Positions 29,974 to 50,300 of a stretch of 64,000 nucleotides of DNA are shown here, piece by piece. Numbering within the stretch: position 1 is the stretch's first letter; each line of letters starts with the position of its first letter. Source of the DNA: Bacteriovorax sp. BAL6_X. Lineage in GTDB: Bacteria; Bdellovibrionota; Bacteriovoracia; Bacteriovoracales; Bacteriovoracaceae. The stretch covers positions 682,001 to 746,000 of the forward strand of contig NZ_AUMC01000003.1 in assembly GCF_000443995.1 (NCBI RefSeq), in the 5' to 3' direction. The notes under the pieces are model-generated. The model ran no database searches. It had not been told where the DNA came from and saw only the letters and a list, made by a program, of their open reading frames with translations. The position numbers and the translations under genes were made by a program.

Positions 29974-30010
29974 GTAATCAGTGGTAATCAGTCAATTACC
30001 AACTGATTAC
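29974..30010. repeat. Integrase arm-type repeats, left end
   Basis: GTAATCAGT occurs at 29974-29982 and 29984-29992, and its inverse ACTGATTAC at 30002-30010, overlapping the 3' end of the integrase gene. The same 9-mer family occurs at the other end of the element. Confidence 0.7.
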
Positions 30011-31274
30011 CTTGATTAACTCTAAAGCTACTTAGTGGAATAACATTGTGATAATGATTTTGAATAGGTAAAGCTTCGTCTTTATACCCAAGTTCAATCA
30101 TTTTCTTCTTAATCTCTTCAGTAACTTTTAAAGAAACTTCTTTATTGAGCTCCTCGTCAAGCTTTGAGTAGTGGTCTGCTAACTTAAAGTCCTTATGGCC
30201 AGTCATTGCTATAACCGCATCAAGTCCACCACCAATTTTACGAGCTAGTTTTGCCATTCCATGTCTCAATATATGAGTACCTGAGTGTGGAATACCTGCT
30301 CGTCTTTGAGCTTGGCGGTAGTTCTTCTGAATAGTGCCGTAATTTAGAGGCTTACCGTTAACATGAAAAACAAAGTTACTTCCTTCAAACCTATCTTCTT
30401 GTCTCCTTAAAAGTATAGCCTTTAAAATTGGTGTTAAATAGAAAGGTCGTGGTTCTTTGTTTTTAGGAGAATCGTTCAAAGATACAAAAGTTTTAGAGGA
30501 GTTATCCCAGTAACATGTCTCCATAATTGTTGCTTTGTTCCTTGAAAAATCAACTCTATGCCACTGAAGTCCTGCAATTTCACCAATCCTACTTGCTGTA
30601 AGATATTGAAACATAGCTAAATCTCTGTATAGAGGATTAAGATGTTCAAAGAATCTAAGACATTCTTCTACTGAAATATTCATATCCCTAACAGGCTTCG
30701 GTCTAATAATACCTAGCTTCTTATGTTCGGTTCTTACAGGATTAATTAAGAACTTTGCTTCTTGTTCATACAGCTCATGTTTCTGATACCAGTTGAAAAT
30801 TGTGGTGAACAAGTTAAGCTCATTATCAAGATTACACCTTTTTGCTTTTCCACGAGAACTTCCTTCATAAAAGTCACTTTTGAAATACTCAACGTTTTCT
30901 TCAACCCAAGACCTTACTTTACTTCTCGTAATGAGGTTCATAGGTAGATGTTCAAGAGTTTTCAAAAGTTGATAGCGTCTTAACCAAATTGTCTTCGTAC
31001 TTTTGGCGAGTGTTGGAAAGTGATGTTTCTGCATCGAGTCCCAGACTTCCTTAAGGGATGCATATTGCCTTTCTTGACTTTGGTCTTCGTCAACCCCATT
31101 AAAAGTAATTAGCCAGTTCTTAGCTTGTCTGAGACTTTCAAACGTTCTCCTCGTAGTCTTATTGCGTATCGTTTTAGTCGCTTGGTAGTTTCCTGTGTTT
31201 TTGTGCTTACATATCCCTCTACAGCTTGGTACAGGGATATACATGTTTTCACGCTTTTGTTGTTTTTTACTCAT
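29988..31274 (-). CDS. int: Tyrosine recombinase / integrase of the mutM element
   Basis: A 428-residue phage-type integrase. An N-terminal arm-binding region, a core-binding SAM-like domain (about 70-180) and a catalytic domain (about 200-390) can be made out. Catalytic residues lie in LTASRIGEIAGLQW (Arg), HILRHGMAKLA (His-x-x-Arg), MTGHKD (His) and DHYSKL (Tyr nucleophile). The gene ends 67 bases from mutM and is read towards it, so integrase transcripts may now supply mutM. Adjacent excisionase-like gene fits integration/excision control. Confidence 0.94.
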   Translation of the reverse strand: MSKKQQKRENMYIPVPSCRGICKHKNTGNYQATKTIRNKTTRRTFESLRQAKNWLITFNGVDEDQSQERQYASLKEVWDSMQKHHFPTLAKSTKTIWLRRYQLLKTLEHLPMNLITRSKVRSWVEENVEYFKSDFYEGSSRGKAKRCNLDNELNLFTTIFNWYQKHELYEQEAKFLINPVRTEHKKLGIIRPKPVRDMNISVEECLRFFEHLNPLYRDLAMFQYLTASRIGEIAGLQWHRVDFSRNKATIMETCYWDNSSKTFVSLNDSPKNKEPRPFYLTPILKAILLRRQEDRFEGSNFVFHVNGKPLNYGTIQKNYRQAQRRAGIPHSGTHILRHGMAKLARKIGGGLDAVIAMTGHKDFKLADHYSKLDEELNKEVSLKVTEEIKKKMIELGYKDEALPIQNHYHNVIPLSSFRVNQGNQLVID

Positions 31275-35499: not shown

Positions 35500-36105
35500 T
35501 CAGGATACGGCACTAGTCTCACCTAGCTTGTAAGCCTTGATAATTCTAGAGACAGAGGAGGGGCTTGCTTTCACTATTTTAGATATTTCAATGTTAGTTA
35601 ATGATTTCTTGTGAAGACTTATTACAGTCTCTCTACAAATAACTCTTTCACGTCCAATCCTCTTTCCTTGAGCCTTTGCATGCTCAAGACCTCTCTTGAC
35701 CCTGTCTGAAATTTGGTTCTTTTCAAGTTCCGCAATACTCCCTGTGACAGATAGAATCATTTTTCCAATAGGCGTAGAAAAATCAATTTGCTCATTTATT
35801 GAGATTAGTTTTACGGACATAGAGGCAAGCTCATTAGCGACATCAAGAAGGTGTCTAAGAGAGCGAGAAAGCCTTGATAAGGAAACAACTATAACAGTAT
35901 CAATCAAGTCATTTCTACAGTCTTCTATTAGTTTATTAAGAGCAATTCTGTCTGATTTTGCTCCACTTATCTTGTCTTCATAGATGAGGTAGTCCTCAAC
36001 TGAATAGCTCTGGGATTTACAATAGTTCTCTGCTCTTAGCCTTTGGGATGCTAAATCCTGCCTTTGGGTGGAGACTCTAAGGTAGATAGCTTTTTTTGAC
36101 TTCAT
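35500..36105 (-). CDS. Small serine recombinase (resolvase/invertase family)
   Basis: A 201-residue recombinase of the Tn3-resolvase/Pin type. The catalytic serine is in IYLRVSTQRQDLASQ, the arginine patch in VVVSLSRLSRSLRHLLD, and the E-helix in GKMILSVTGSIAELEKNQISDRVKRGLEHAKAQGKRIGR, followed by a short C-terminal HTH (SLTNIEISKIVKASPSSVSRIIKAYKLG). Size fits resolvases rather than large integrases. It may resolve multimers or invert DNA; no flanking inverted repeats were found. Divergent from the ribbon-helix-helix gene. Confidence 0.92.
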   Translation of the reverse strand: MKSKKAIYLRVSTQRQDLASQRLRAENYCKSQSYSVEDYLIYEDKISGAKSDRIALNKLIEDCRNDLIDTVIVVSLSRLSRSLRHLLDVANELASMSVKLISINEQIDFSTPIGKMILSVTGSIAELEKNQISDRVKRGLEHAKAQGKRIGRERVICRETVISLHKKSLTNIEISKIVKASPSSVSRIIKAYKLGETSAVS

Positions 36106-37988: not shown

Positions 37989-39059
37989 TTAACTGGAAAC
38001 TTTTTGTTCTACCTTTATACAAGTAAAGTCATCTTCATTAAAGAAAACATAGTTTACACCATCTCCTAAAGAGCTTTTGAACATTAATCCGTCATATTTA
38101 TTATGCTTAATTCTTTCACTTATATATTGAGTTGGTAGGTAATCAAAATATGGGTCGTGAGAATTTGTCTTACTAGACATCTCTTGAATGTACATCTTTA
38201 AGATTTCGAGGTCTTGTATATACGACTTCAGTTCTGGGCCTAGAGCAAATGGAGATGTGATGTAGTAATTACTCAGGTCAACTACTACTTTTGGTTCCTT
38301 TAAAGAAAATTCTCCTATGGAATATGTTTCGCCAGTTTTAATTTTGATTTCTTTTTCACAGATAGAGGTATTAGACCCCAAGTAGAAATAGGAAATACCC
38401 TTAGGATTTGCTCTACCCACAGAAGCGAACTTACAAGGAGGTGGCCCCATTTCATTTTTATTAAGTACTTTGTCAGAAGGTCTTGCTCGGTAGAAGACTG
38501 TATCAATACTAACAGTTCTTTTTCTTGTTTGAAATATTTTATCTAGATTATCTAATTGAATTTGGTTATCTGGAAAAAAACGATTTGAGTGCTTTAGTTC
38601 TTCTTTAAAGGATTCCCAGAAATCATACTCCATTTGACTATCTTCATCATGGATAAAACAATTATCAAATCTATAACATGGGTCTTCTGATAATGACTTT
38701 AGTTGCCAATTTTTCTCAATATTTGGGAATGCTCCAATAATTATATCTGTAATCATTCTATAATTATCTGAGTGGTAATAGTCATCGAATACACCAAAAT
38801 CCTCTTGAATAAGTTCTGAAACGTGGGGGCCTTCATCTTCATGGCTTCCTCCTTCAAATAGTGATGAAGCCGAATATCTATCATAGGGAATATACAGCCC
38901 TAGCAATGGTTCAAATAAGGAAGTTAAATCACTGACCTCTATGCATTCTTCAGACTCTTCTTCTCCAATTTCACACTTTCCAGTCTTTAATTTAGCTTGA
39001 AGGTTTTCTAGTAAGTATGAGTCTTGGAAATATTTAATATCTATATATGTTTTTGTCAT
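37989..39059 (-). CDS. RES-domain protein with N-terminal HEPN/RES-like region
   Basis: A 356-residue protein. The C-terminal half is a RES domain: FYRARPSDKVLNKNEMGPPP, GRANPKGISYFYLGSNTSICEKEI and YISERIKHNKYDGLMFKSS match the Arg-Glu-Ser pattern of NAD+-degrading RES toxins. The N-terminal 175 residues resemble the HEPN-RES N-terminal region (SSLFEPLLGLYIPYD and VSELIQEDFGVFDD). RES toxins usually pair with an Xre antitoxin; no such gene is adjacent, so it may be activity-gated by its own N-terminal domain. Divergent from the channel operon 89 bases away, so possibly part of the same defence module. GAGG precedes the ATG. Confidence 0.8.
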   Translation of the reverse strand: MTKTYIDIKYFQDSYLLENLQAKLKTGKCEIGEEESEECIEVSDLTSLFEPLLGLYIPYDRYSASSLFEGGSHEDEGPHVSELIQEDFGVFDDYYHSDNYRMITDIIIGAFPNIEKNWQLKSLSEDPCYRFDNCFIHDEDSQMEYDFWESFKEELKHSNRFFPDNQIQLDNLDKIFQTRKRTVSIDTVFYRARPSDKVLNKNEMGPPPCKFASVGRANPKGISYFYLGSNTSICEKEIKIKTGETYSIGEFSLKEPKVVVDLSNYYITSPFALGPELKSYIQDLEILKMYIQEMSSKTNSHDPYFDYLPTQYISERIKHNKYDGLMFKSSLGDGVNYVFFNEDDFTCIKVEQKVSS

Positions 39060-39148
39060 AAATTAGACCTCGTTTGTTCATTAGGGTTAAATAATTCTAG
39101 TTTTTATGATATACCCAGTCAAAAACAATTAGTATGAAGGTCAATAGA

Positions 39149-40603
39149 ATGAAAAAGCTTGGTCGCTTTATAGAAGAACATGAAATATTTTTGAACTTTA
39201 AGTTTTATTTATTTCTTATCCCTTTAATAATACTTGGATTCACCTTTATTTTTATGAAGATGAATGAAAGTTTTGTAGTGAATTATACTGTAGGCAGTTC
39301 ATTTGAGCAGAATGCAGTAGAAGAGTTTTTTGATGACTTTTGTAAAGAAAACTCGAAACTTTATATTTTAGAAAGGTCGTTGAATAAGTGTAAGTTTTCT
39401 TTTGCCCCACCTGTATCTTTCTCTTCGTATAAAGATAAGCCCAACTACGTTATTGAGGAAATTTCTATTTCGTATAATCGTTTTGAAGAAAATATATTAA
39501 AGTTATCATATTCAGTTAATTATTCACAGCATACAAATGAGAAGAAGGAAGACTCTGGAGTATTAGAGTTTAGATTTGAGAATTATAATAAAGACCATAT
39601 TGAAAGATATATCCTCTTTAAGGCTGTTCCACACGTTTCTTACCCTAAGGGAAATCCTCTTTTTAAAATTGAACCAAAAAATGGTAGTCAAACTCAAGTT
39701 GCAGGGCCACACAAAGCGTTGGATTTTCTTTCTTTGGGTGTGATGAATATTAAGAAAACTGGTGGCTCAATTACTTCAGGTAAAGATTGGAGTTACTTTC
39801 ATTTAAAGCCAAGTAACTCATTGACAAATATTTACATGTCCTTAGTCGAGGGGAAACCTATTCTAAATAAGGTTAGTAATTTGTTCCCACTGTTTATTTA
39901 TTATAGTGGTATTACTTTTATGACGGTTGGATATGGGGATGTTACACCTGTAACAAATATAGCTAGAATCTTAGCTGTATTTGAGTCCTTTTTAGGGATT
40001 GTTTTTATGGGACTTTTATCAGGTAGTTTCTTTGCTCATGTTGTTAACTTATTTACTAAGCCGTGGAAGCAGTTTGAGAAACATTTAACGAAGCATGATG
40101 ATTGGACTAGGTCAGAGGACCCTGAAACTGGTGTTGAAAGTTATTATTATATTCCTAATCCTGAATTTAAAATAATCGTTGGAAATAACTCTGTTAGTTA
40201 CAATGAGCCATGGTCTCAAAATTTTACCGATAGAGATTCAAGAGCTTCTACCTATAGTTTAAAGTATAAGGATACTATTTTATATAACTTTAGGTTTGTT
40301 TACTGTGATGGTGCTCGTGGTATTCATATTCAACCTGAACAAAAGGTAATGTATGAAGGAAATGCGTATAGTTTACCTTTTAATCGTTATTATTACATGA
40401 TTAGAAATTCATTTAAAGATAAACTCAACAAGTTAATACAGTCAAAGTCTATATCCGAGTTAAGGTTTCAAATTAATTACTTCGATAGTGAAGAGGATGC
40501 ATTAATGAAAATTGAAGAATCTTTTAGTGGCAATGATGAAACTCTTACTTGTTATAGGATAGAAGTTTCTGGTGGAGAATATACTCTTATAAATCGTTTG
40601 TAA
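39149..40603 (+). CDS. K+-channel-like membrane protein with large external domain
   Basis: A 484-489-residue protein. TM1 is near residues 18-37 (FYLFLIPLIILGFTFIFMK). A roughly 205-residue domain follows, then a pore helix and the K+ selectivity filter TVGYGD (about 259-264), and TM2 (IARILAVFESFLGIVFMGLLSGSFFAHVV). The C-terminal 170 residues are soluble and beta-rich. Two-helix pore proteins normally have a short turret, so the 205-residue insertion, on the outside by topology, is unusual. The in-frame ATG at 39134 lacks an SD; 39149 has AAGGT. First of three genes followed by two HEPN-motif proteins, hence a candidate membrane effector or sensor. Confidence 0.85.
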   Translation: MKKLGRFIEEHEIFLNFKFYLFLIPLIILGFTFIFMKMNESFVVNYTVGSSFEQNAVEEFFDDFCKENSKLYILERSLNKCKFSFAPPVSFSSYKDKPNYVIEEISISYNRFEENILKLSYSVNYSQHTNEKKEDSGVLEFRFENYNKDHIERYILFKAVPHVSYPKGNPLFKIEPKNGSQTQVAGPHKALDFLSLGVMNIKKTGGSITSGKDWSYFHLKPSNSLTNIYMSLVEGKPILNKVSNLFPLFIYYSGITFMTVGYGDVTPVTNIARILAVFESFLGIVFMGLLSGSFFAHVVNLFTKPWKQFEKHLTKHDDWTRSEDPETGVESYYYIPNPEFKIIVGNNSVSYNEPWSQNFTDRDSRASTYSLKYKDTILYNFRFVYCDGARGIHIQPEQKVMYEGNAYSLPFNRYYYMIRNSFKDKLNKLIQSKSISELRFQINYFDSEEDALMKIEESFSGNDETLTCYRIEVSGGEYTLINRL

Positions 40604-42758: not shown

Positions 42759-42810
42759 ATTTTATTCCTTTTTTTGTGTGAAGAGTAGCTTAACATTTTC
42801 GAAAATTTAT

Positions 42811-42876
42811 TTCGACTTTTTTATCTTTAGGTGCGGTTTAGGTTGAGGTCGTAAGGTGTTCATTTTGTTGTTGGGG
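42811..42876. repeat. 66-bp direct repeat, left copy
   Basis: Matches 49191-49256 with three mismatches at the same relative positions (offset 6380). Weaker similarity continues on both sides for about 100 bases, up to the ribosome sites of two unrelated genes. It contains TTATCTTTAGGTGCGGTTTA. The 42622-42992 gap holds only this repeat and attR. Confidence 0.85.
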
Positions 42877-42992
42877 CGGTTTGAGATGGTATGTATGTGG
42901 CTGGAATTGTTGGAGTTTTGGTGATGTGAGAGGGTTAAGTTTTGGGTGGTGAATGGCGATGGGGGATTATATTATTTTTCTCGGAGTTTAGT

Positions 42993-43403: not shown

Positions 43404-43997
43404 ATGGGAACATCTGTTTCGCAACCATCTCCTACAGCTAGTTCAGAAGGTGGGAATGAGTGGAATGACGTTAAAGATTCAATTAGGAATTTTACAAATA
43501 TAGAAAATATAACTTCAAAACTTGTTGTTGCTTATGAATCTCAGTACGACGCTAGTGCTTCTGAGGTTATTGTCGACAGAGGTGTTGAAAGTGTAATCAC
43601 ATCTCTAGAAAGACAAATCTCAGCTAATACTTCAAGTGAAGAAAAAGTACTTAATATGATGCTGGCATCACGAAAGGAATTAGCCATAAATAACTGTAAC
43701 TCTTTTTTTGCCGAAATCGCTTTATCAGCAGCATCTACAGCCTTAATGTCAAACAATGCAGATGTTATGAAGAAATTTGCATCAAATTACGCCAAAAGGA
43801 TAATAGACTACATTGCCTCTCGAGACCTTCCTATGAATATTGGCACGAAGGGATTGACAAATTTAGGCTCTTTAGATCGCGTACTATCTAGTTCTGAACA
43901 ATATTTTGAGAGTAAACTTAACCAATCACAGACTGGAACTATTACTGAAAAATTAAAAAGCATATTTACGCAGTCTGGAGAGGTCACGGATGAGTGA
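43404..43997 (+). CDS. qatB-like: QatB-like defence protein
   Basis: A 197-residue soluble protein whose N-terminus MGTSVSQPSPTASSEGG matches the Met-Gly-Thr-Ser start seen in QatB of the Qat anti-phage system. After Met removal a Gly would be exposed; QueC-like partners in related systems are reported to modify such an N-terminal glycine. The rest is helical and Ser/Ala rich. It overlaps the next gene by 8 bases, and that gene is QatC-like, which supports the call. QatB is usually longer, so this is a short or divergent form. Confidence 0.6.
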   Translation: MGTSVSQPSPTASSEGGNEWNDVKDSIRNFTNIENITSKLVVAYESQYDASASEVIVDRGVESVITSLERQISANTSSEEKVLNMMLASRKELAINNCNSFFAEIALSAASTALMSNNADVMKKFASNYAKRIIDYIASRDLPMNIGTKGLTNLGSLDRVLSSSEQYFESKLNQSQTGTITEKLKSIFTQSGEVTDE

Positions 43998-45720
43998 ATA
44001 TAATGTTTATGTAGACAGGTCAAAATTAGAGCTACAGATTAGCAATAATAATATTTATCTCCCTTATGCTAAAGATGGCAGATATTGGAATGATATTTGT
44101 CGATCAGTAAAGCTAACTTCTCAGGATGGAAATGCTACAGATGAGGTTCGGGATCTCGTGGATGTTTCTATTGCGATTTTCAACTTAGATAAATTGTGTC
44201 CAAGAGAGATGCGAGAAAGGTGGGTTAGGAGAATAAACTTACACATAGGTCTCAGAAATGCGGCTGCGTTCAGACAAATAAAAGATAAACTTGAGTGGGC
44301 ACTTAGCGTTCTTGGTGCGGATAACATAAACTTTGTAATTAGTGATTATGTTGATCAAGAATTTACTTCATTCCGTCCTAACAAATTCTCAAGAAAAATA
44401 AGGAATGCTACTGATATTTGTCTACTCTCTGGTGGCCAAGATAGTCTTGTAGGAGCTGCAAAATTACTTGATGAAGATAAGAATCTTATTTTTGTCCGTA
44501 TAAACACAAACGATCGTGCAAATTTATCCCAGATTCAAGGGCATCTTGGAGTCGTTGAGAATGGATCATTTAACTTCTTTTCTCAAACAGCTGTAAATCC
44601 TGGTGACACACCTTACGAGAAAGAAAGTAGTCAAAGACTTCGTTCATTTCATTTTTTGAGTATAGCAAGTGTAATTGCAAAATTAAATAATCTTGAAGAT
44701 ATATACATAAATGAGAATGGCATTATGGCAGTTCACTTGCCCCTCGATGTAGCACGTTCCTCATCATTCTCTACTAGAACCGCATATCCTTTATTTTTAA
44801 AATTATTTGGTGAAGTTGTTAGTACATGGTTAGATACGACTATTAATATTAAAAATAAGTTAGCACTGTACACGAAGGCAGAGGTTTTGGAACTTGGTTA
44901 CAGTCTGAATATTGATGACGCAATAGATTGGACTGTTTCTTGTGCTCATTCAGGTACTATTCAACAAACTGTAAAAAAGCAGAGAAGCAAAGATTATTTA
45001 ATGGCACCAACAGCAGATGAGTATCACTGTGGTTACTGCTTTCCTTGTGTGTTAAGACGATTGTCTATGTGGAAAAATGGCAAAGGTGATGATGATGTAA
45101 TTTATGCAACGAATCCTTTTAAAGTAATAGTTGATGGCAGCGCAAAGGACTTCAAATTCGTTTATGAGGCTTCGACTGCAATTTTAGGCTTAATTAGATT
45201 TGTTAAGAAGTTTGAAGGGATGAGTAGAGCTGAAATAATTAGCGACTATCCTCAAGTGCTTGAGTGTGGATATGTATTAGGAGTAGGTTCGGTTGATGAA
45301 ATTATTTTAATGCATGAGAGATTTAAAGATGATGTGTTTAACTATATCAATCAAGAAGCTAGTTATTTGCTTTTTCTACTAGATGATAATATTGCAAGTC
45401 AAATGGAAGAGCGTATGCAGAATATAGGAGTGGATGAACTTATGAACTCTGCTTTAAACAGAGCAAATGTAGAACTTACGGATGCATTTTATAAACAAGC
45501 TGAAAATATGTTCGATTTTCTAAGATTGAGAATTCAGGTTGCACTAGCTACCGGTCAAATGAATGAATCAGAAATGAAAACATTGGTTTCTAGAGTAATT
45601 GAGGAAATAGTGCCCAGTAATAGTAATGGAGTTACTAAATTAACAATGAGAGATAGTAGAGAATTTAAAGAGAAAGTGTGGGGCAAAATTACAGATCAGC
45701 CATGCCCTCCCTTTTGGTGA
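43990..45720 (+). CDS. qatC-like: QatC/QueC-like PP-loop protein
   Basis: A 576-residue protein. The ATP-pyrophosphatase PP-loop is CLLSGGQDSLVGA (SGGQDS at 147-152), and the zinc cluster is Cys318 plus HCGYCFPCVLRR with Cys347, 350 and 353, as in QueC (7-cyano-7-deazaguanine synthase). It is twice the length of QueC: extra N-terminal 140 and C-terminal 200 residues match defence-associated QatC-type proteins rather than housekeeping QueC, and no queC-pathway gene is nearby. It likely adenylates a deazaguanine acid or amide and passes it on to a protein partner such as the upstream QatB-like gene (inference). Confidence 0.8.
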   Translation: MSEYNVYVDRSKLELQISNNNIYLPYAKDGRYWNDICRSVKLTSQDGNATDEVRDLVDVSIAIFNLDKLCPREMRERWVRRINLHIGLRNAAAFRQIKDKLEWALSVLGADNINFVISDYVDQEFTSFRPNKFSRKIRNATDICLLSGGQDSLVGAAKLLDEDKNLIFVRINTNDRANLSQIQGHLGVVENGSFNFFSQTAVNPGDTPYEKESSQRLRSFHFLSIASVIAKLNNLEDIYINENGIMAVHLPLDVARSSSFSTRTAYPLFLKLFGEVVSTWLDTTINIKNKLALYTKAEVLELGYSLNIDDAIDWTVSCAHSGTIQQTVKKQRSKDYLMAPTADEYHCGYCFPCVLRRLSMWKNGKGDDDVIYATNPFKVIVDGSAKDFKFVYEASTAILGLIRFVKKFEGMSRAEIISDYPQVLECGYVLGVGSVDEIILMHERFKDDVFNYINQEASYLLFLLDDNIASQMEERMQNIGVDELMNSALNRANVELTDAFYKQAENMFDFLRLRIQVALATGQMNESEMKTLVSRVIEEIVPSNSNGVTKLTMRDSREFKEKVWGKITDQPCPPFW

Positions 45721-45731
45721 TGAGGTATATT

Positions 45732-46280
45732 ATGAAGGATAAGAAAGACATTGATATCTATTCAAATGGTATGAGTAGTATGATTACAATTGCGACAGCA
45801 GGATTAGCTGCAGCTACAGCCTTGATGCAACTTAGAGGAGAAGGAGCAGGTTCTTCATTTTTATATATTTTAGCAATCATACTTTTCTTTGTTGCATTAT
45901 TAACATGTTTCTTAACAATATCTGGAATTATTGGGCAAGCAACAAAGGATGACTACGATATAAACGTCAAAAACATTAAACTTCCAGCACTTGGCTCATT
46001 CTTCTTAGTTCTTCTTGGTTTTGTATTCCTTGCTAAGGGAGCATATGATATTTCTGAAAAAAGTGTTACGACAGCTACATTAGAAGTGAGCCTAGTCGAA
46101 ATATTAAAATGTGACTCTCTAGATGACACTAAAAAGCCTGCATGTTATGAGGCAATTATTTCTAATAACCTAAATAAGATATCTATAGATAAGCTTGATT
46201 ATTCTAATATGAACAAGAGTGAGAAAACGTGGGTTAAAAGATTTCTTTTGAAAAGCACCCAAGTTAAAGTAAAAAAATAA
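45732..46280 (+). CDS. Membrane protein linked to QatBC-like pair
   Basis: A 182-residue protein with probably three hydrophobic segments: SSMITIATAGLAAATALMQL, FLYILAIILFFVALLTCFLTISGIIG and ALGSFFLVLLGFVFLAKGAY, and then a soluble C-terminal part of about 65 residues with two Cys. ATG at 45732 has GAGG 6 bases upstream; it follows the QatC-like stop by 11 bases. In known Qat loci QatA (ATPase) and QatD (TatD nuclease) are present; here this protein takes their place, so it may be the membrane-damaging effector. This is inference from gene order. Confidence 0.65.
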   Translation: MKDKKDIDIYSNGMSSMITIATAGLAAATALMQLRGEGAGSSFLYILAIILFFVALLTCFLTISGIIGQATKDDYDINVKNIKLPALGSFFLVLLGFVFLAKGAYDISEKSVTTATLEVSLVEILKCDSLDDTKKPACYEAIISNNLNKISIDKLDYSNMNKSEKTWVKRFLLKSTQVKVKK

Positions 46281-46303: not shown

Positions 46304-46324
46304 TTCCAGGTGCTTTTTCTTTAC
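46304..46324. repeat. Palindromic repeat P2, left half
   Basis: TTCCAGGTGCTTTTTC plus TTTAC is the left arm of the P family. The matching right arm is 110 bases away at 46435-46454, split by a gene fragment. Confidence 0.75.
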
Positions 46325-46328
46325 TAAC

Positions 46329-46391
46329 AAGAATTTTGAATTTGATGATGGGAATGATGTTGTTGTTATTGTTGCGGAGTTAGTTGGGTAG
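46329..46391 (+). pseudogene. 3'-terminal fragment of the 49373-50110 gene family
   Basis: The 21 codons (KNFEFDDGNDVVVIVAELVG and stop) match the C-terminus of the membrane protein at 49373-50110 (KNFEFDDGDDVVVLDVSL), with most of the DNA conserved over the first 45 bases. It begins right at the left half of P2, so a cassette was probably truncated by recombination or deletion at the repeat. Confidence 0.75.
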
Positions 46392-47046: not shown

Positions 47047-47139
47047 GTGACTCTTCTGAAGTAAGAGGAATTTGAAAATTATTATACTGAATGAAAAAGA
47101 GTGAAGTAAAAAAGCTCGAATCAATGTTAAAATAGTGCT

Positions 47140-47182
47140 CTAGGTGCTTTGGGCGACCATGCGTAGTGAAAAAGGCACCTAG
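47140..47182. repeat. Palindromic repeat P3
   Basis: CTAGGTGCTTT (47140-47150) and AAAGGCACCTAG (47171-47182) pair with one bulge. It lies about 90 bases after the ART-like gene. Confidence 0.8.
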
Positions 47183-47244
47183 GATGATTCTTTATATAAC
47201 AAGATTTAATAATAATAGTAATAGTTGTTTTGTAGGAGTCAGAT

Positions 47245-48049: not shown

Positions 48050-48060
48050 GAATTAATGTT

Positions 48061-48104
48061 CCAGGTGCTTTTTCTTTACGCAAGGTCAACGAAAAGGTAC
48101 CTGG
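48061..48104. repeat. Palindromic repeat P4 (best copy)
   Basis: CCAGGTGCTTTTTC and GAAAAGGTACCTGG form a 14-bp stem with G-T pairs, loop about 16 bases with TTTACGCAAGG. It is followed by CTGGAACCAAAGTT. The most complete copy of the family and the best seed for a search. Confidence 0.85.
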
Positions 48105-48130
48105 CTGGAACCAAAGTTCGAGACATTGAT

Positions 48131-48785: not shown

Positions 48786-48959
48786 GTTGCTGTCGCTTAT
48801 ACGATCTCTCACGATATTTTTAGTGAGCAGATGTGAAAAATCGTGAAATGAAATGAGAATAAATGAAATGACGAAAGCGCGGGAAAGCCCATTAGGAGCG
48901 AAACTTATTGATTTTGTTCGTTTTTGAAAGAGGCTAAAGATAGATCGGCTAGTACTGGC

Positions 48960-49170
48960 ATGCGACACGTCCTGAGTAAAGCTCAGGTCCAAAATGCGAG
49001 AGCATTTTGACGGTCGCTTTACTGTTGTGCAATCGCGACGGGAAAAGACTTCAAGTCAAAGTCGTTGTACGTCTGCGATGCATGGGCGGAGACCATCTCC
49101 GCCTGTAATTGCGTGCCATTTTACCTGGACGCATTGAAGTTCGCAATTACGAATTCGCACAAATCTTTTT
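48960..49170 (+). ncRNA. Highly structured GC-richer segment, possible ncRNA
   Basis: Five or six adjacent stem-loops in 200 bases: CCTGAG-TAAAG-CTCAGG (48971-48987), AAAATGC-GAGA-GCATTTT (48991-49008, GNRA loop), GTCGC/GCGAC (49013-49039), GGCGGAG-ACCAT-CTCCGCC (49085-49103), and GTAATTGCG/CGCAATTAC (49105-49150). A T run at 49166-49171 could terminate a + strand transcript. No ORF explains it. It is clearly less AT-rich than its surroundings. No known family matches; strand and existence of a transcript are inferred. Confidence 0.5.
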
Positions 49171-49190
49171 TGAAAATATTTTGAATTTTT

Positions 49191-49256
49191 TTCGATTTTT
49201 TTATCTTTAGGTGCGGTTTAGGTTGAGGTTGTAAGGTGTTCATTTTGTTATTGGGG
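49191..49256. repeat. 66-bp direct repeat, right copy
   Basis: Second copy of the block at 42811-42876. Here it precedes the membrane protein gene at 49373; in the left copy it precedes the Cys/His-rich secreted protein. Confidence 0.85.
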
Positions 49257-49372
49257 GTGTATGGATGCAGTTGTATATACTTATATCGTTGATGTTTTGG
49301 AGCTTGTTAAGGCTTAAATTTCTGGGGTTAGGTGGCGATGTGTGATTATAATAATCAACTATGTCAGGTCTT

Positions 49373-50110
49373 ATGAATAAACTCATAAAAATTAATCACG
49401 TATTGCAATTTATTGTTTATGTCGTATTTATTATTTTTTTAAGCGTTATGACTTATTCAAGTCTTTCAGCCTTAAGAGGCAATTCAGCAGAAGAAGTAGA
49501 TCTAAATAAGGGCGAGAGTGAAGATAAGCTTGGTGAGTATGTCTCTATTCCTGTAACAGCTTCTAATGATAAGTTTCTTGTTTCATATGTTGTTAACTTT
49601 GATAAGAATAGAAGTTCGTACAAGAGCTTCAAGTCATCTGCTAGTAATGAAAAATACACCTCTTTTTTAAGTTCCAACTTATGGGGATGTTATCGTTGTT
49701 CCATTTCAAATTTAAAAATAATTAATCGTAAGACTTCAAAGTCTAAAGACTTATTTGATGAAAGAGAAGTTATTGGTGGTTTTGCTGTACCAAGAAATAA
49801 AGATCAAAATGGTAAGCCCTCTAAAAATAAACTAGATCGAATATTCTTCTCAAAAATTGATTCTGATTACAATTCTGACGAAGTTTTAAGTTCAAAAGAT
49901 GGATATCGACTTTATATATCTGATTTTGATGGGAAGAGTAAGGTGGCATTATCTCCTGAGGGAACAGATGTCGTTAGCTACCGTGTCGATTACGAATTTA
50001 AGAAGATATACATACAAGTAAAGAAAGATAGTAATAAGAATTTTGAGTTTGATGATGGTGATGATGTGGTTGTTCTGGATGTTAGCTTGAGTGAGTACTT
50101 TGAGGGTTGA
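49373..50110 (+). CDS. Membrane-anchored hypothetical protein
   Basis: A 245-249-residue protein with an N-terminal membrane helix (VLQFIVYVVFIIFLSVMTYS) and a soluble, probably periplasmic domain with one WGCYRCS pair. Near the C-terminus DSNKNFEFDDGDDVVVLDVS is Asp-rich and could bind calcium. A fragment of the same family lies at 46329-46391. ATG at 49373 has CAGG at 6 bases; ATG at 49361 is also in frame. Function unknown. Confidence 0.7.
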   Translation: MNKLIKINHVLQFIVYVVFIIFLSVMTYSSLSALRGNSAEEVDLNKGESEDKLGEYVSIPVTASNDKFLVSYVVNFDKNRSSYKSFKSSASNEKYTSFLSSNLWGCYRCSISNLKIINRKTSKSKDLFDEREVIGGFAVPRNKDQNGKPSKNKLDRIFFSKIDSDYNSDEVLSSKDGYRLYISDFDGKSKVALSPEGTDVVSYRVDYEFKKIYIQVKKDSNKNFEFDDGDDVVVLDVSLSEYFEG

Positions 50111-50170: not shown

Positions 50171-50248
50171 GTATGGAGCTAAAACTCACAATATGATTAA
50201 TATGGGTGGTTTCTAGTGCTTAAGAGAATTAGTAAAGTAGAATAGTAT

Positions 50249-50300
50249 CCAGGTGCCTTTTCTTTACGCAAGGTCAATCAAAAGGTAGATTAAACCAAAG
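50249..50300. repeat. Palindromic repeat P5
   Basis: CCAGGTGCCTTTTC with TTTACGCAAGGTCAA matches P4; the right arm has degenerated (AAAAGGTAGATT), but the tail TAAACCAAAGTT remains and leads into leader L2. Confidence 0.75.

What the first reader, a model, noticed from the sequence alone, without database searches (positions are those of the whole stretch)
48960..49170. Cluster of stem-loops with no ORF: candidate structured RNA
Five or six consecutive hairpins, one with a GNRA loop (GAGA) and one closing 9-bp stem, in sequence less AT-rich than the neighbourhood, ending in a T run. It sits between higBA and a duplicated block in a defence-like region. It matches no RNA family I know; possibilities are a retron-like or regulatory ncRNA.
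Basis: partly seen in the sequence, partly recalled or inferred. Interest (0 to 1): 0.65.

Follow-up and report, generated by a model that had tools for sequence, protein, structure and literature searches.

The report
Mobile folded repeat of predatory bacteria

Summary
In detail: 48955-49160 folds far better than shuffled sequence (z -4.5) and holds no gene. It matches no Rfam family. It is not a retron: the genome has no reverse transcriptase. It is the only copy, in this Halobacteriovorax-like genome, of a dispersed element present in 1-8 copies in 23 of 129 Bacteriovoracaceae genomes, and found nowhere else in its phylum, in viruses or in plasmids. The conserved part is about 48960-49089: an outer stem, an AAAATGC/GCATTTT hairpin, the linker TTTA, and a long stem CYGTTGTGC...GCATGGGCGG. 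Covariation is very strong: 23 of 26 pairs show double changes. G-U pairs outnumber A-C mismatches 179 to 19, so one strand is under selection. Copies are mobile: congeners have empty sites, and several copies are flanked by 13-37-bp duplications. 14 of 49 copies begin within 3 nt of a same-strand stop codon (p about 1e-16 against random intergenic placement). Best reading: a non-autonomous, SINE/REP-like mobile structured element. The mobilising enzyme, and whether it acts as RNA or single-stranded DNA, are unknown.

The parts
48830..48959 (+). leader module with GTGAA-type repeats, GGGAAAGCCC mini-hairpin and CGGCTAGTACTGG, found only with the hairpin-1-bearing subtype
   Evidence: 67-71% match to upstream flanks of copies in G081, G084 (twice) and G087, and to a leader without core in G015; function unknown
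48962..48966 (+). outer stem, 5' arm GCGAC (pairs with 49013-49017 GTCGC); the 5' boundary of the element lies here (TGCGACAC)
   Evidence: covaries by eye (GCGAT/ATCGC, GCCCG/CGG-A-GC); target duplications end here in other copies
48971..48987 (+). hairpin 1 (CCTGAG/CTCAGG), optional: subtype A only
   Evidence: CCTTGG/CCAAGG and CCTG/CAGG in relatives
48990..49009 (+). hairpin 2, CAAAATGC-GAGA-GCATTTTG (the GNRA hairpin)
   Evidence: 97.5% of cells paired over 61 copies, all 7 modelled pairs with double changes
49013..49017 (+). outer stem, 3' arm GTCGC
49018..49030 (+). near-invariant TTTACYGTTGTGC: unpaired TTTA then 5' strand of stem 3
   Evidence: invariant columns; motif 0 times in reversed control
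49031..49079 (+). distal part of hairpin 3, hypervariable in sequence, about 23 nt longer here than in most copies
49080..49089 (+). near-invariant GCATGGGCGG, 3' strand of stem 3 (one bulged G)
   Evidence: stem 3 keeps 91.6% of cells paired, 10 of 13 pairs with double changes
49085..49103 (+). alternative hairpin 4, GGCGGAGA-CCA-TCTCCGCC, exclusive with the base of stem 3; present in a subset of copies
49105..49150 (+). 9-bp stem GTAATTGCG/CGCAATTAC and inner hairpin: private to this copy
   Evidence: not aligned in any relative

Best explanation
It is a copy of a low-copy, non-autonomous mobile element, like a bacterial SINE or REP, restricted to Bacteriovoracaceae. One strand folds into a conserved outer stem, hairpin and long GU-containing stem. 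A trans-acting enzyme, not identified, presumably recognises that fold in a single strand (RNA or ssDNA) and inserts the element into non-coding positions: directly after stop codons, beside terminators, inside tRNA genes with duplication of 13-37 bp of target, and in a riboswitch loop. Shown here: family, fold and covariation, strand specificity, dispersal, empty sites, target duplications, stop-codon preference. Inferred: recognition of the fold by a mobilising enzyme, and arrival of the window copy on the genomic island that carries higBA and a QatC-like gene.
For: 54 matches in 23 of 129 family genomes, 1-8 per genome, in unrelated places. Covariation score 0.411 against 0.167 shuffled and at most 0.103 slid, also on an alignment not fitted to structure. 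GU 179 against AC 19. Empty sites downstream of ssb in 4 of 6 congeners and at two tRNA genes. Direct repeats of 13-37 bp abutting the 5' boundary in 6 copies. 14 of 49 copies within 3 nt of a same-strand stop codon against 1.2% expected. Tandem 86-90-bp arrays inside cobalamin riboswitches. Window context: phage integrase, resolvase, RES, QatC.
Against: No enzyme co-occurs convincingly: reverse transcriptase p 1.0, IS110 p 1.0, REP-associated transposase only p 0.03 and not adjacent. Most copies lack target duplications. Duplication length varies and one case (L119/L127) may be a tandem duplication. Compensatory change at one retained site (L132/L140) suggests a function beyond mobility.
Confidence: 0.7

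Rival explanations
1. A host-selected RNA element: it sits at mRNA 3' ends, directly after the stop codon, or in tRNA leaders, and is bound by a protein or RNase to stabilise, process or regulate abundant transcripts; dispersal built a small regulon.
For: Sense orientation and 0-3-nt stop-codon spacing in 14 of 49 copies against 1 antisense; host genes are ssb, dnaK, ribonucleotide reductase, FKBP and others, with groEL and HU near by, and tRNAs; strand-specific GU pairs; fold kept with compensatory changes at the same site in two genomes (L132/L140).
Against: Copies are absent from the same sites in congeners, and antisense to genes or in riboswitches elsewhere; the window copy follows no same-strand gene and is the only one in its genome.
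Confidence: 0.22
2. A REP-type palindrome moved by a REP-associated tyrosine (Y1) transposase.
For: All 15 well-assembled positive genomes carry a Y1_Tnp gene against 42 of 58 others; one Y1_Tnp gene lies between two copies in G001.
Against: No copy near any of the 30 Y1 loci examined; Y1 loci L183, L187 and L192 carry other GGTGCC-type palindromes; G020 has five copies but only a Y1 fragment.
Confidence: 0.1
3. A retron msr-msd or other reverse-transcriptase ncRNA.
For: Stable multi-hairpin structure beside a defence region.
Against: No reverse transcriptase domain in this genome; no association across the family.
Confidence: 0.01
4. An IS110-type bridge RNA or an integron attC site.
For: Insertion at hairpin-like targets such as tRNA arms; structured element in a cassette-like region.
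Against: IS110 transposase in 3 of 23 carriers, none here; no RYYYAAC or GTTRRRY core site in 48900-49180.
Confidence: 0.02

Closest known systems
REP elements, GTAG and CGTC superfamilies (PMC3733652, PMC8266576)
   Same: dispersed intergenic palindromes with variable stems, close to or overlapping stop codons; CGTC next to an A/T-starting stem; CGTC families also lack a known enzyme
   Different: about 100-270 nt and multi-hairpin instead of 20-50 nt; 1-8 copies instead of tens to thousands; the CGTC pairs with GACG here instead of being an unpaired tag; long target duplications
Other short interspersed elements: ERIC, Rickettsia palindromic elements, Nostoc small dispersed repeats (from memory)
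   Same: structured, non-autonomous, insert next to or inside RNA genes
   Different: no sequence similarity known to me; different hosts; not compared by alignment here
Eukaryotic SINEs (from memory)
   Same: strand-specific structured element, variable-length target duplications, some 5'-shortened copies
   Different: no reverse transcriptase association found, no A-rich tail

Membership tests
REP (GTAG/CGTC) | 20-50-nt single palindrome with an unpaired GTAG or CGTC tag | tested here: not met
   core is 80-103 nt with two or more helices; CGTC of copies without hairpin 1 pairs with GACG
REP (GTAG/CGTC) | many copies per genome | tested here: not met
   one copy here, 1-8 in relatives
REP (GTAG) | copies flank a cognate Y1 transposase gene | tested here: not met
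   no copy in 30 Y1 loci; one loose pair in G001
Retron | reverse transcriptase gene next to msr-msd | tested here: not met
   no RVT_1 match in the genome
Any Rfam family | covariance-model match at gathering score | tested here: not met
Integron attC | RYYYAAC and GTTRRRY core sites | tested here: not met
   none in 48900-49180 on either strand
IS110 bridge RNA | DEDD transposase next to the RNA | tested here: not met
   no PF01548 in the genome
Bacterial short interspersed mobile element | dispersed copies with empty sites in relatives | tested here: met
Bacterial short interspersed mobile element | demonstrated transposition and its enzyme | not testable with these tools
   needs experiment

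The most novel reading that the evidence does not exclude
A bacterial element that moves through a folded RNA (or a transcription-exposed single strand), preferring 3' ends of highly expressed genes and tRNA genes, with SINE-like variable target duplications, and that is then kept as a 3'-UTR regulatory element in predatory bacteria.
Probability: 0.15. Interest if true: 0.85.

Novelty: new variant of a known kind. Interest (0 to 1): 0.55.

Why it matters
Strong covariation is usually read as proof of a functional RNA gene. Here it belongs to a mobile repeat, with a stop-codon and tRNA insertion preference that no REP family I know of shows in this form. It offers a defined family, with empty and filled sites in cultured Halobacteriovorax relatives, to ask how small folded elements move and what they do to the transcripts they join.

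Tried and rejected
Retron: no reverse transcriptase here. Rfam: no match; the best weak hit, a poxvirus element on the other strand at E 0.026, is taken as chance. REP-associated Y1 transposase: present in the genome but not next to copies. IS110: absent here. attC core sites: none. Plasmids, phages and viral contigs: no match. Genome-wide pattern scan: only Bacteriovoracaceae-type records. Terminator: none found. Literature: no description of such a repeat found for Bacteriovorax or Halobacteriovorax.

Full report
Observation. The stretch 48955-49160 folds at -80.2 kcal/mol against -59.5 +/- 4.6 for dinucleotide shuffles (z -4.5, 0 of 200), and the opposite strand also folds well (z -5.1), so folding alone gives no strand. 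The GAGA hairpin (48990-49009), the exact 9-bp stem (49105-49113 with 49142-49150) and the higher GC are real. There is no Rfam match in the window at gathering score and none of note near the element at relaxed score. The T run is not part of a recognisable terminator, and no sigma-70-like promoter was found on the + strand.

What it is. A nucleotide search of relatives returned short, multi-copy matches in different contexts. The exact motif GCTTTACNGTTGTGC occurs in 14 of 129 family genomes and never in the reversed control. A covariance model of the shared core finds 54 matches in 23 of 129 Bacteriovoracaceae genomes, 1 to 8 per genome, and one in the window's genome. A search of 369 genomes of the phylum gives the same 23. 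A scan of 84,980 species genomes with a combined motif finds only Bacteriovoracaceae, Halobacteriovoraceae and related MAGs. Viral contigs, phages and plasmids have none.

Anatomy. Consensus: TGCGAC-A-CG [optional hairpin 1] AAAATGC-loop-GCATTTT-GACGGTCGC-TTTA-CCGTTGTGC-[variable hairpin]-GCATGGGCGG, often followed by AGACCATCTCCGC. In the window these are 48962-48966 with 49013-49017, 48971-48987, 48990-49009, 49018-49030, 49031-49079 and 49080-49089. GGCGG can pair either in stem 3 or in hairpin 4 (49085-49103). A subtype with hairpin 1, to which the window copy belongs, also carries a leader of about 130 nt.

Selection on the fold. On a structure-blind MAFFT alignment of 15 copies, 11 pairs show changes on both sides and the covariation score is 0.283 against 0.122 shuffled. 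On 61 distinct copies, 23 of 26 pairs do, with score 0.411 against 0.167 shuffled and 0.103 at most when slid (this alignment was fitted to the model, so it leans towards it). G-U pairs outnumber A-C mismatches 179 to 19, or 73 to 15 without the three wobble columns. The strand under selection is therefore the one read here (window + strand), as RNA or as single-stranded DNA.

Mobility. Downstream of ssb, G001 and G004 carry the element directly after the stop codon, while four congeners, the window's genome included, have an ordinary short 3' UTR and terminator. At two tRNA genes, congeners show the empty site. Six copies are flanked by direct repeats of 13-37 bp that abut the 5' boundary: five at tRNA ends (L119 and L127 being orthologues) and one, L138, covering the end of a ribonucleotide reductase gene. 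In L146, L150 and L122 the break lies at the same place, the end of the tRNA D-stem 5' strand (read by eye). The L119/L127 repeats may instead come from tandem duplication. Tandem 86-90-bp arrays occur in three genomes, in two of them inside cobalamin riboswitches, antisense. Two near-neighbour pairs flank accessory genes.

Site preference. 14 of 49 copies start within 3 nt of a same-strand stop codon, against 1.2% expected for a block placed at random in the same intergenic space; the antisense arrangement occurs once. Two gene pairs are orthologous, so about 12 are independent. Host genes include ssb, dnaK, ribonucleotide reductase, an FKBP isomerase, a T2SSE-type ATPase and a nucleoside transporter; groEL and HU are close by. 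That these are highly expressed is inference from general knowledge.

Mechanism. Shown: family, fold, strand, gains, duplications, placement. Inferred: a trans-acting enzyme recognises the folded strand. Reverse transcriptases and IS110 transposases do not co-occur with the element (p 1.0 each), and Y1 transposases do so weakly (p 0.03, confounded by phylogeny) without adjacency. The window copy lies near higBA on a region with a phage integrase (29988-31274), a resolvase (35500-36105), a RES-domain protein and a QatC-like protein, and other hairpin-1 copies or leaders lie near toxin-antitoxin or defence-like genes (G015; G081 HepT/nucleotidyltransferase pair; G086 AAA_13 protein). It most likely came in with such cargo, which is inference.

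Comparison. REPs are 20-50-nt palindromes with an unpaired GTAG or CGTC tag, in high copy; GTAG families are tied to Y1 transposases and CGTC families have no known enzyme; GTAG ends may supply stop codons (PMC3733652, PMC8266576). The present element shares dispersal, palindromes, closeness to stop codons and lack of an enzyme with these, but fails on size, tag and copy number, so it is filed as a new variant of the short interspersed element kind, not as a REP.

Noticed in passing
window 46305-46344, 47139-47185, 48060-48105, 50248-50290: A second dispersed palindrome, AGGTGCTTTTTCTTTACGCAAGGTCAACGAAAAGGTACCT type, separates small single genes like cassette boundaries. Similar GGTGCCATGCACTTTTGGTTTCGC repeats flank Y1 transposase genes in relatives (L183, L187).
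   Followed up: partly
window 42804-42961 and 49184-49340; 46322-46374 and 50029-50081: Two diverged duplicated blocks bracket, in copy 1, the QatC-like gene region, as if the defence genes were inserted into one copy of the 49361-50110 gene cassette.
   Followed up: partly
window 43990-45720: QatC-like (QueC-related) protein with unassigned neighbours 43404-43997 and 45678-46280; no PADLOC hit for QatA, B or D among the proteins tested.
   Followed up: partly
window 29988-31274, 35500-36105, 37989-39059, 39134-40603: Tyrosine integrase, serine resolvase, RES-domain protein and ion channel: a genomic island probably spanning about 30-50.5 kb.
   Followed up: partly
L133 3953-8707 (G001): Two nearly identical element copies flank a 4-kb set of small accessory genes inserted downstream of ssb.
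   Followed up: partly
L143 3993-4335 and L130 3981-4231 (G015, G059): Four and three tandem element copies sit inside or directly beside the variable region of a cobalamin riboswitch, antisense to it.
   Followed up: partly
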